DNA of 64,000 nt, taken from contig CANGYJ010000012.1 in NCBI GenBank assembly GCA_947458455.1, positions 82,422 to 146,421 on the forward strand, read 5' to 3'. The stretch is from Verrucomicrobiaceae bacterium (GTDB lineage Bacteria > Verrucomicrobiota > Verrucomicrobiia > Verrucomicrobiales > Verrucomicrobiaceae). The position numbers were made by a program, and so were the translations under genes. This document shows, piece after piece, positions 62,556 through 63,948 of the stretch (its first letter is position 1; each line of letters opens with the position of its first letter). The notes under the pieces were generated by a model that was not told the DNA's origin, did no database searches, and saw nothing but the letters and a program-made list of their open reading frames with translations.

Positions 62556-62595
62556 CTAACACCTCTTAGGACACTGAGCGGACTACCTTTTGCTC

Positions 62596-63015
62596 ATGAC
62601 CGAATACCACTTCCGAATCCAATACGCCGACTTCACCGCCGAGATCGTGCTCGGCGATCAGTGGTCGCTCTACGACCTGGCGGAGTTCATCATCCAGACG
62701 GTGGGCTTTGATTTCGATAATGCCTTTGAGTTTGGTGACAACGTGAAGGACCCGTATCAGAGCCAGGAGCGCTACACGCTCTTTGCGGACACCGGGGATG
62801 CGGATGATCCCGACGAGCCGGGGGTGAAGGAGACGCTGGTTTCCGAGGTGTTCCGCCCAAAGCGGAAGATGGTCTTCCTCTTTGACTATGGCGATGACTG
62901 GTTCTTCCCCATCACCTGCACAGCGGTGACGCCTTCGGACAAGAAGCGGCGTTTCCGCCGGGTGCTCTCCACCACCGGCACGCCGCCCGTGCAGTATGAA
63001 TCTCCTGATGAGTGA
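62596..63015 (+). CDS. Plasmid pRiA4b ORF3-like family protein
   Basis: YHFRIQYADFTAEIVLGDQWSLYDLAEFIIQTVGFDFDNAFEFGDNV...MVFLFDYGDDWFFPITC. Confidence 0.7.
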   Translation: MTEYHFRIQYADFTAEIVLGDQWSLYDLAEFIIQTVGFDFDNAFEFGDNVKDPYQSQERYTLFADTGDADDPDEPGVKETLVSEVFRPKRKMVFLFDYGDDWFFPITCTAVTPSDKKRRFRRVLSTTGTPPVQYESPDE

Positions 63016-63089
63016 CGCCACGCCTGCCTGATCACGCGGGACGGTGGCGGCTACTTTACGATTTCCCTTTTCCCAACTGCCGCTATCCT

Positions 63090-63839
63090 ATGAACCATGA
63101 CCGCGAAGGAAAACATCACCCGCTGGCGCAGCCTGACGCCGGAGGAGAAGCTGCGCCGCCGCTGGGAAGCGATTCCCACGAATGTGGCGCGGAGCATGGC
63201 CTTCGAGCGGGAACCGGTGGAGGTGGCCCGGATTCGCGAGACACTCGCCCAGATCACGCCACCCGCTTTATTGAAACCACGCATGGCACCCTGAGCTATG
63301 CGGAGCTAGCTCCCCTACTGGCTGATCGTGTGACGGTGGTGGAGGCTGCCATCCAGTCGGGTGACTTTGCGGAGCACGCGCTGGATGAATGGCTGCTGTT
63401 GGATCTGCACCAGCGCATCTGTGGTGATCTGGTGCCTGACTGGGCGGGAAAGTGGCGGGACATCGAGGTCACGGTGGGACGTCTGAAGCCAGCGCTACCC
63501 TTTCAACTGCCCGTGCTGATGCGGGACTACGGGCTGGACCTTCAGGCTCGGTTGCCTGCGGCTGTTTCGGGCGCAGAGGAGTCGCTGATGGAGTTCCTTG
63601 CCTTTGCGGAAGGGCGCTTCCTGACGATTCATCCCTTCAGGGATTTTAACGGGCGAACCATTCGTCTGCTGCTGACGGAATTGCTGCGGCGTCTGGACCT
63701 GCCTCTGGTGACTCTGGCTCCCGAGAGTGAGACGGAACGCGCGACCTATTTTCTAGCCCTGGAGGCAGCAGATCAATGCGACTGGCAGCCGCTCATGGCG
63801 GTATGGAACGCCCGCCTCACCACCTCGGAACAAGACTGA
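63090..63839 (+). CDS. Fic/DOC domain protein (start codon unresolved; conserved region begins ~63265)
   Basis: FIETTHGTLSYAELAPLL; LLLDLHQRICGDLVPDWAGKWR; LTIHPFRDFNGRTIRLLLTELLRRLDLPLV (Fic motif). Confidence 0.85.
   Translation: MNHDREGKHHPLAQPDAGGEAAPPLGSDSHECGAEHGLRAGTGGGGPDSRDTRPDHATRFIETTHGTLSYAELAPLLADRVTVVEAAIQSGDFAEHALDEWLLLDLHQRICGDLVPDWAGKWRDIEVTVGRLKPALPFQLPVLMRDYGLDLQARLPAAVSGAEESLMEFLAFAEGRFLTIHPFRDFNGRTIRLLLTELLRRLDLPLVTLAPESETERATYFLALEAADQCDWQPLMAVWNARLTTSEQD
63097..63294 (+). CDS. VbhA-like small antitoxin candidate (Fic inhibitor)
   Basis: RRRWEAIPTNVARSMAFEREPVEVARIRETLAQ: N-x3-S-x3-E spacing like the class I Fic antitoxin motif (S/T)xxxE(G/N), with R at the last position; directly upstream of fic. 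Confidence 0.6.
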   Translation: MTAKENITRWRSLTPEEKLRRRWEAIPTNVARSMAFEREPVEVARIRETLAQITPPALLKPRMAP

Positions 63840-63855
63840 GAACTACCTTTCCCCA

Positions 63856-63939
63856 ATTCGTCATTCGTCATTCGTCATTCGTCATTCGTCATTCGTCATT
63901 CGTCATTCGTCATTCGTCATTCGTCATTCGTCATTCGTC
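63856..63939. repeat. Perfect 7-bp tandem repeat (attcgtc) x12
   Basis: 12 consecutive attcgtc units read directly, ending 9 nt before the cas4 start. Confidence 0.97.
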
Positions 63940-63948
63940 ATTTCCACC

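What the first reader, a model, noticed from the sequence alone, without database searches (positions are those of the whole stretch)
62556..63948. Insertion in a type I-C cas operon between cas7 and cas4: pRiA4b-ORF3-like + VbhA-like/Fic pair + 12x7-bp repeat
Seen: cas3-cas5-cas8c-cas7 run continuously, then three non-cas ORFs on the same strand interrupt before cas4. Known: type I-C operons are normally cas3-cas5-cas8c-cas7-cas4-cas1-cas2. Inference: a Fic toxin-antitoxin placed between the interference and adaptation genes could act as an addiction or abortive backup tied to cas expression, in the way CRISPR-regulated TA modules guard other systems, or be a CRISPR-linked effector.
Basis: partly seen in the sequence, partly recalled or inferred. 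Interest (0 to 1): 0.82.

Follow-up and report, generated by a model that had tools for sequence, protein, structure and literature searches.

The report
Nested Fic toxin-antitoxin inside cas operon
Between two halves of a bacterial CRISPR operon sits a toxin-antitoxin pair whose antitoxin gene is written inside the toxin gene in another reading frame, and relatives of the pair keep turning up inside other anti-phage operons, so it looks like a travelling guard or stowaway of defence systems.

Summary
In a type I-C operon, cas7 is followed by a PRiA4_ORF3 gene, a small antitoxin-like ORF, an intact Fic gene, 12.4 copies of ATTCGTC and then cas4.

(1) Nesting. The antitoxin ORF (63097-63294) lies wholly inside the Fic ORF (63090-63839) in another frame. 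Both frames are under selection: the antitoxin's silent sites are frozen only in the lineage where the Fic frame runs through them.

(2) Recurrence. Of 26 genomes with a relative, 10 carry it in a type I-C or I-G cas operon, in several slots; about 5 more carry it in BREX, DISARM-like, type I restriction-modification or similar operons. It is linked to defence operons rather than to CRISPR as such. The cas7-cas4 junction takes other cargo too (22 of 39 operons).

(3) Promoter. Across the family a promoter-like box sits 6-7 nt before the antitoxin start, predicting a leaderless antitoxin mRNA. Here the toxin's start codon would lie upstream of that transcript, so toxin would come only from cas read-through RNA.

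Best reading: a type II Fic pair whose toxin dose follows the host operon. A Cas-dependent, CreTA-like antitoxin is not supported. Fic pairs in cas loci were reported in 2013 (PMC3936711). No experiment was done.

The parts
61527..62555 (+). cas7 (Csd2), type I-C; gene immediately upstream of the insertion
   Evidence: TIGR02589 E 1.1e-88, above cut-off
62596..63015 (+). pRiA4b ORF-3-like gene (PF07929)
   Evidence: PF07929 E 7.5e-08. A relative at 58% identity precedes AT/Fic-cas4 in L088. Relatives sit between interference and cas4/cas1 genes of type I-G operons in G066 and G382
63084..63089 (+). Predicted -10 box TATCCT of the antitoxin promoter (weak -35-like TTTCCC at 63062-63067); predicted transcription start at or next to A63097
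   Evidence: Family pattern TTGNNN-N15-18-TANNNT-N5-8-start in 15/26 loci against 16/18,991 background positions; 0/34 other window genes. The window's own -35 is weak, and a strict sigma-70 scan finds no promoter here
63090..63839 (+). Fic-family toxin ORF (249 aa from ATG 63090; alternative GTG 63012 overlapping the PRiA4 stop)
   Evidence: PF02661 E 1.7e-11; 881 relatives, mostly about 249 aa; AlphaFold core 58-249 mostly above 90, residues 1-57 below 50; fold match to VbhT, EcFicT and FICD
63097..63294 (+). Antitoxin-like ORF (65 aa), entirely nested in the Fic ORF in another frame
   Evidence: Conserved in 26 loci. Fic-frame stops 0 in 19/19 clade-A loci against 1-4 in the control frame. 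Silent sites 23/140 changed against 249/509 in Fic outside the overlap, p 1e-12. Predicted three-helix fold
63193..63210 (+). SMAFER: Fic-inhibition motif S-x-x-x-E (S33, E37 of the antitoxin)
   Evidence: S33, M34, F36 and E37 invariant in 12 aligned antitoxins; next residue G or R
63630..63665 (+). Fic catalytic motif HPFRDFNGRTIR (canonical G replaced by F)
   Evidence: H181, P182, F183, D185, F186, N187, G188, R189 and R192 invariant in 42 relatives
63856..63942 (+). 12.4 perfect copies of ATTCGTC between the Fic stop and cas4
   Evidence: a three-copy run occurs at only one other place in the genome, contig C10
63949..64000 (+). Start of cas4, cut by the contig end
   Evidence: Translation VDLLPISALNHLLYCER, like the Cas4 starts of L087 and L088 (L088 Cas4 TIGR00372 E 8e-36)

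Best explanation
This is a type II toxin-antitoxin pair: a Fic-family nucleotide transferase (toxin) and a small helical antitoxin that inhibits it through the S-x-x-x-E helix. It is lodged in a defence operon. Shown by sequence comparison: both reading frames are selected, the antitoxin is nested in the toxin, and the family recurs in cas and other defence operons. Inferred: the antitoxin is transcribed from its own promoter as a leaderless mRNA starting at its ATG. The toxin's ATG lies 7 nt upstream, in that promoter's discriminator, so full-length toxin is translated only from RNA that reads through from the cas operon. Toxin dose therefore follows cas transcription while antitoxin is supplied independently. 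If the locus is deleted, or if host transcription or translation is shut off by a phage, the toxin should outlast the antitoxin and modify a host protein, stopping growth. That would make the pair an addiction lock on the locus and an abortive-infection backup.
For: Fic domain, intact motif and VbhT/EcFicT-like fold. Antitoxin conserved in every locus with invariant S33/E37 and a three-helix model. Dual coding: zero stops in the Fic frame in 19/19 loci; antitoxin silent sites constrained, 0.33 against 0.66, in the overlapping lineage and not in the non-overlapping one, 0.61 against 0.68, p 1e-12 on disjoint pairs. Promoter box at fixed spacing before the antitoxin, absent before other genes. 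Toxin start at ATG -7 in most clade-A loci, at +131 inside the antitoxin in clade B. 10 of 26 genomes in cas operons, about 5 more in other defence loci; binomial P below 1e-13. cas-linked copies are scattered on the tree. Leaderless transcripts are typical of TA pairs in M. tuberculosis, 32 of 37 (PMC3898074).
Against: No expression, toxicity or binding data. The window's own -35 is weak and a strict sigma-70 scan finds nothing. The catalytic motif has F in place of the canonical G, so AMP transfer is not assured. The antitoxin has no profile or fold match to VbhA. Standalone copies (L005, L089) show that a host operon is not required. The toxin's extra N-terminus is predicted disordered, so why it is conserved is unclear.
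Confidence: 0.55

Rival explanations
1. Selfish hitch-hiker: the pair is a promiscuous addiction module that settles in defence islands because operons there are tolerated and exchanged. It serves only its own retention and has no role in immunity.
For: Many unrelated contexts (BREX, DISARM-like, restriction-modification, AbiE-like, standalone) and several slots within cas operons. The cas7-cas4 junction carries VapBC, IVP four-helix, Bro-N, ORF6N and HEAT-nuclease genes in other genomes. Decayed copies exist (L103, L104, L107).
Against: 10 of 26 genomes in cas operons is far above chance and the copies are co-directional. In L091 the toxin frame is fused to cas3, which a pure hitch-hiker would not need.
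Confidence: 0.3
2. CRISPR-regulated addiction as in CreTA: Cas proteins or a crRNA-like RNA keep the toxin silent, so loss of Cas frees it.
For: Position between interference and adaptation genes; CreTA precedent (PMC12737573; PMC9458426).
Against: No CRISPR-repeat-like sequence in the interval: best match 18/37 against a shuffle mean of 20. A protein antitoxin with its own predicted promoter is present; the family occurs outside CRISPR loci.
Confidence: 0.05
3. The small ORF is not an antitoxin but a chance shadow frame of an N-terminally extended Fic.
For: In many database entries only the long Fic ORF is predicted.
Against: In the divergent lineage the Fic frame is broken by stops while the small ORF stays intact with the S-x-x-x-E motif and its own promoter box.
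Confidence: 0.03
4. Fic acts as a CRISPR-linked effector or regulator (for example modifying a Cas protein) rather than as a host-directed toxin.
For: Fusion of Fic to the C-terminus of type I-G Cas3 in L091; recurrence in cas operons.
Against: Relatives are kept in loci with no cas genes nearby; a paired inhibitor fits a toxin better.
Confidence: 0.07

Closest known systems
VbhT-VbhA / EcFicT-EcFicA (Fic class I toxin-antitoxin)
   Same: Fic toxin with a separate small helical antitoxin carrying S-x-x-x-E before it; fold match to 3shg and 5jff
   Different: Here the antitoxin is completely nested in the toxin frame; the Fic motif has F for G; the antitoxin has no detectable sequence or fold match to VbhA
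Mobile mystery protein A/B (TIGR02612/TIGR02613), including the Geobacter sulfurreducens cas locus
   Same: Fic protein in type I cas loci; window Fic matches TIGR02613 at E 1.9e-10, below its cut-off; Fic and TIGR02612 antitoxin in a cas locus reported in PMC3936711
   Different: The partner there is a TIGR02612 protein (a helix-turn-helix family, from my own knowledge) in a separate gene, not a nested 65-aa protein; score 40.9 against cut-off 124.4
CreTA (CRISPR-regulated toxin-antitoxin)
   Same: Toxin-antitoxin pair between cas genes that could make the locus addictive
   Different: CreTA is RNA-RNA and needs Cascade; here both parts are proteins, no repeat-like RNA is found, and the family lives outside CRISPR too
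Leaderless TA modules of Mycobacterium tuberculosis
   Same: TA pair expressed from a promoter ending right at the start codon of its first gene (PMC3898074)
   Different: There, as far as I know, the toxin start is on the same transcript; here it would lie upstream of the transcript start

Membership tests
Fic/DOC (PF02661) | Fic domain above gathering score | tested here: met
   45.2 bits against cut-off 24; Foldseek to FICD, VbhT, EcFicT
Fic/DOC (PF02661) | Canonical HxFx(D/E)GNGRxxR motif | tested here: not met
   HPFRDFNGRTIR: H, D, N, G, R and R kept, central G is F in all 42 relatives. The domain call does not depend on it; activity may
Class I Fic toxin-antitoxin (VbhT-VbhA type) | Separate small partner with (S/T)xxxE(G/N) motif | tested here: met
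   SMAFE(G/R): S33/E37 invariant; sixth position G in about half, R in the window
Class I Fic toxin-antitoxin (VbhT-VbhA type) | Partner homologous to VbhA | tested here: not met
   No Pfam, PDB sequence or PDB fold match; filed as 'works like', not as a VbhA member
Class I Fic toxin-antitoxin (VbhT-VbhA type) | Toxin inhibits growth, partner relieves it | not testable with these tools
   Needs expression experiment
Mobile mystery protein B (TIGR02613) | Score above curated cut-off 124.4 | tested here: not met
   40.9 bits
Type I-C CRISPR-Cas | cas3-cas5c-cas8c-cas7-cas4-cas1-cas2 with array | tested here: inconclusive
   Interference genes match type I-C models; cas4 cut by the contig end; cas1 not in the assembly
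CreTA | Ectopic CRISPR repeat (CreA) near the toxin | tested here: not met
   Best repeat match 18/37, no better than shuffles. The genome's own repeat is unknown; the repeat of G266 was used

The most novel reading that the evidence does not exclude
A class of toxin-antitoxin guard for multi-gene defence operons in which the toxin's start codon is hidden in the antitoxin's own promoter. Toxin is then made only from the host operon's read-through RNA while the antitoxin needs only its leaderless mRNA, linking toxin dose to defence expression by DNA layout alone, with the antitoxin gene overprinted inside the toxin gene.
Probability: 0.35. Interest if true: 0.82.

Novelty: new variant of a known kind. 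Interest (0 to 1): 0.62.

Why it matters
If true, it shows how a small addiction module can be wired to any defence operon it lands in, without a dedicated regulator: read-through makes toxin, a local promoter makes antidote. It also adds a well-supported case of a protein antitoxin gene nested inside its toxin gene, and shows that the boundary between CRISPR interference and adaptation genes is a cargo site in Verrucomicrobiota. The layout can be tested directly by mapping transcript starts.

Tried and rejected
CreTA-like RNA: searched the interval for the CRISPR repeat of G266 and for repeat tails; only one coding-driven ATTGAAAC at 63270, no better than shuffles. I-C repeat pattern in the own genome: none, the assembly lacks the array. 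Plasmid or phage origin: only matches of about 40% identity on plasmids, none in phages. VbhA family for the antitoxin: no match in Pfam, PDB sequence or PDB fold. Small ORF as a shadow frame: rejected by stops in the Fic frame of divergent loci. A -1 frameshift making a fused antitoxin-Fic protein: no slippery heptamer seen by eye at the end of the antitoxin, and clade B has its own toxin ATG at +131; not tested further. A broad Fic search of the phylum gave mostly unrelated Fic proteins, so only matches at E below 1e-20 were used for context counts. For cas7-cas4 gaps, a first reading used the wrong strand for some loci and was redone. The function of the heptamer repeat was not resolved.

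Full report
What is there. The window ends in a type I-C cas operon: cas3, cas5c, cas8c and cas7, with type I-C models above their curated cut-offs. Between the cas7 stop (62555) and a cas4 start (GTG 63949) lie a PRiA4_ORF3 gene, a 65-aa ORF, a Fic gene and 12.4 perfect copies of ATTCGTC. The contig ends with the window, 52 bases into cas4. The assembly (5.35 Mb, 28 contigs, 96% complete) has no cas1 match elsewhere, so the adaptation genes and array are unseen rather than shown to be absent.

The nested pair. The 65-aa ORF starts 7 bases after the Fic ATG and ends inside Fic, in a different frame. The window's Fic frame has no canonical start other than ATG 63090 and GTG 63012 ahead of its conserved core. 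In 26 related loci from whole genomes the small ORF is present, with the core SMAFE(G/R)E in nearly all, which has the Fic-inhibition layout S-x-x-x-E. The loci fall into two groups. In group A (19 loci, window included) the Fic frame is open across the whole antitoxin, with a start usually at -7. In group B (7 loci) the Fic frame is broken by stops in 6 of 7, and the toxin start is an ATG at exactly +131 inside the antitoxin in 6 of 7. So the toxin appears to have gained, or kept, an overprinted N-terminal extension in one lineage; which way the change ran is not shown.

Is the double coding real? Three tests agree. In group A the Fic frame has no stop in 57 codons in 19 of 19 loci, while the third frame has 1-4 stops in each; redrawing synonymous codons predicts 0.9-2.6 stops per locus. 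The antitoxin's four-fold silent sites differ in 33% of comparisons in group A against 66% at silent sites of Fic outside the overlap; in group B the figures are 61% and 68%. Using only disjoint pairs, 23/140 against 249/509, p = 1e-12; group B 18/32 against 85/117, p = 0.09. Amino-acid divergence of the two proteins is equal (0.38 and 0.38), so the effect is not simply slower evolution of the region. A conserved RNA structure could also slow silent sites; this was not tested.

The promoter. Upstream of the antitoxin start, 15 of 26 loci have TTGNNN-N15-18-TANNNT-N5-8-start; the background rate at other positions of the same loci is 16 in 18,991. Related loci are not independent, but the pattern appears in both groups. 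None of 34 other window genes and 1 of 180 genes in the loci have it. A -10 box ending 6-7 bases before the start codon predicts a transcript that begins at that codon. In group A the toxin ATG then falls between the -10 box and the transcript start. The window's box is TATCCT (63084-63089) with a weak -35, and a strict sigma-70 scan of the region finds no site; the family evidence carries the claim. Leaderless transcripts dominate TA pairs in M. tuberculosis (32 of 37; PMC3898074).

Where relatives live. Class-wide, 24 of 390 genomes carry a relative at E below 1e-20, plus two MAGs from another collection. Ten of these 26 genomes have it in or beside a cas operon: window (cas7-PRiA4-AT/Fic-cas4), G266 (cas7-AT/Fic-171 aa-cas4-VapBC-like pair-cas1-cas2-array), G518 (PRiA4-AT/Fic-cas4-truncated cas1c), G618 (AT/Fic-cas3), G597 (cas3-AT/Fic-cas5), G638 (decayed I-C), G417 (type I-G; Fic fused in frame to the C-terminus of Cas3, plus a second copy), G573, G475 and G382 (type I-G, the last truncated). 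Others sit before brxA-brxB-brxC, inside a DISARM-like operon (DpdE/DrmD and DrmMI), beside an HKD-Snf2 system, and, read by eye only, by hsdS/hsdM and AbiE-like genes. If cas operons were 1% of a genome, 10 of 26 would have P below 1e-13. On the Fic tree the cas-linked copies are scattered, so the association arose or moved several times.

The junction. Among 38 I-C operons of the phylum with cas4 located, 21 have more than 250 bases between cas7 and cas4 (22 of 39 with the window). Where ORFs could be read, the cargo includes VapBC, IVP-like four-helix proteins, Bro-N, ORF6N and HEAT-nuclease genes (names by eye). PRiA4 relatives also lie between interference and cas4/cas1 genes of type I-G operons in G066 and G382. 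So an insertion at this place is common in the phylum; the contents are what vary.

Protein level. The Fic core (58-249) models mostly above 90 pLDDT and matches FICD, VbhT and EcFicT structures; residues 1-57, the overprinted part, are predicted disordered. The catalytic motif HPFRDFNGRTIR is nearly invariant in 42 relatives, with F where the canonical motif has G. A 2013 survey of cas loci also found Fic genes in type I loci, eight of ten with a variant motif (PMC3936711). The antitoxin models as three helices with the motif at the end of the long one but has no sequence or fold match to VbhA.

How it most likely works. Toxin and antitoxin roles follow from family knowledge and the motif; they are not shown. 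The layout suggests that read-through from the cas operon makes toxin (and some antitoxin), while a local leaderless mRNA makes antitoxin only. Toxin level then follows defence expression. Deletion of the locus, or phage shut-off, would leave toxin without fresh antitoxin. This differs from CreTA, where losing Cas frees the toxin. The main rival is a selfish module that merely prefers defence islands; genome comparison alone cannot exclude it.

Verdict. CRISPR specificity is not supported; linkage to defence operons is. Novelty lies in the fully nested, double-coded antitoxin and the predicted start-codon-in-promoter layout, not in finding a Fic pair in a cas locus.

Noticed in passing
window 56093-56359 (+): A short ORF just upstream of cas3 matches the first part of the Cas3 HD domain (cas3_HD E 1.8e-09), so the 5' end of cas3 seems partly duplicated or cas3 is broken near its start.
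   Followed up: no
window 53794-54867 (-) and L087 10492-11613 (-): A WYL-domain regulator lies upstream of the type I-C cas3 in both the window and G266, suggesting a shared regulator of these operons (window WYL/WCX by Pfam; L087 by eye).
   Followed up: no
L091 8061-11561 (-): Type I-G Cas3 is fused in frame to a Fic domain with the antitoxin frame nested inside (1166 aa, cas3_GSU0051 E 1e-225). A second copy nearby joins a Cas3 N-terminal piece to another Fic.
   Followed up: partly
Homologous-protein hits P0003, P0010, P0012 and others: Many Fic relatives are named 'CRISPR-associated endonuclease/helicase Cas3' by JGI, probably transferred from Cas3-Fic fusions; a misannotation to beware of.
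   Followed up: no
L135 1489-1917 (-), L139 1501-1923 (+): PRiA4_ORF3 genes without an adjacent Fic sit between interference genes and the cas4/cas1 fusion of type I-G operons, hinting at a CRISPR accessory role of their own.
   Followed up: partly
L088 9233-14670 (+): After AT/Fic-cas4, cas1c is cut short and followed by a metallophosphatase-like fragment and a Cas9-like ORF (by eye), a scrambled locus.
   Followed up: no
cas4-cas1 junction in L087 2054-2736 (-); also L112, L114, L118: A Phd/PIN (VapBC-like) pair between cas4 and cas1 in G266, and extra DNA at the same place in other genomes: a second cargo site in the operon.
   Followed up: no
L043, L056, L059, L062, L063 cas7-cas4 gaps: A recurrent protein of about 290 aa with HEAT-like repeats and a nuclease-like C-terminus lies between cas7 and cas4 in at least five genomes; no name was tested.
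   Followed up: no
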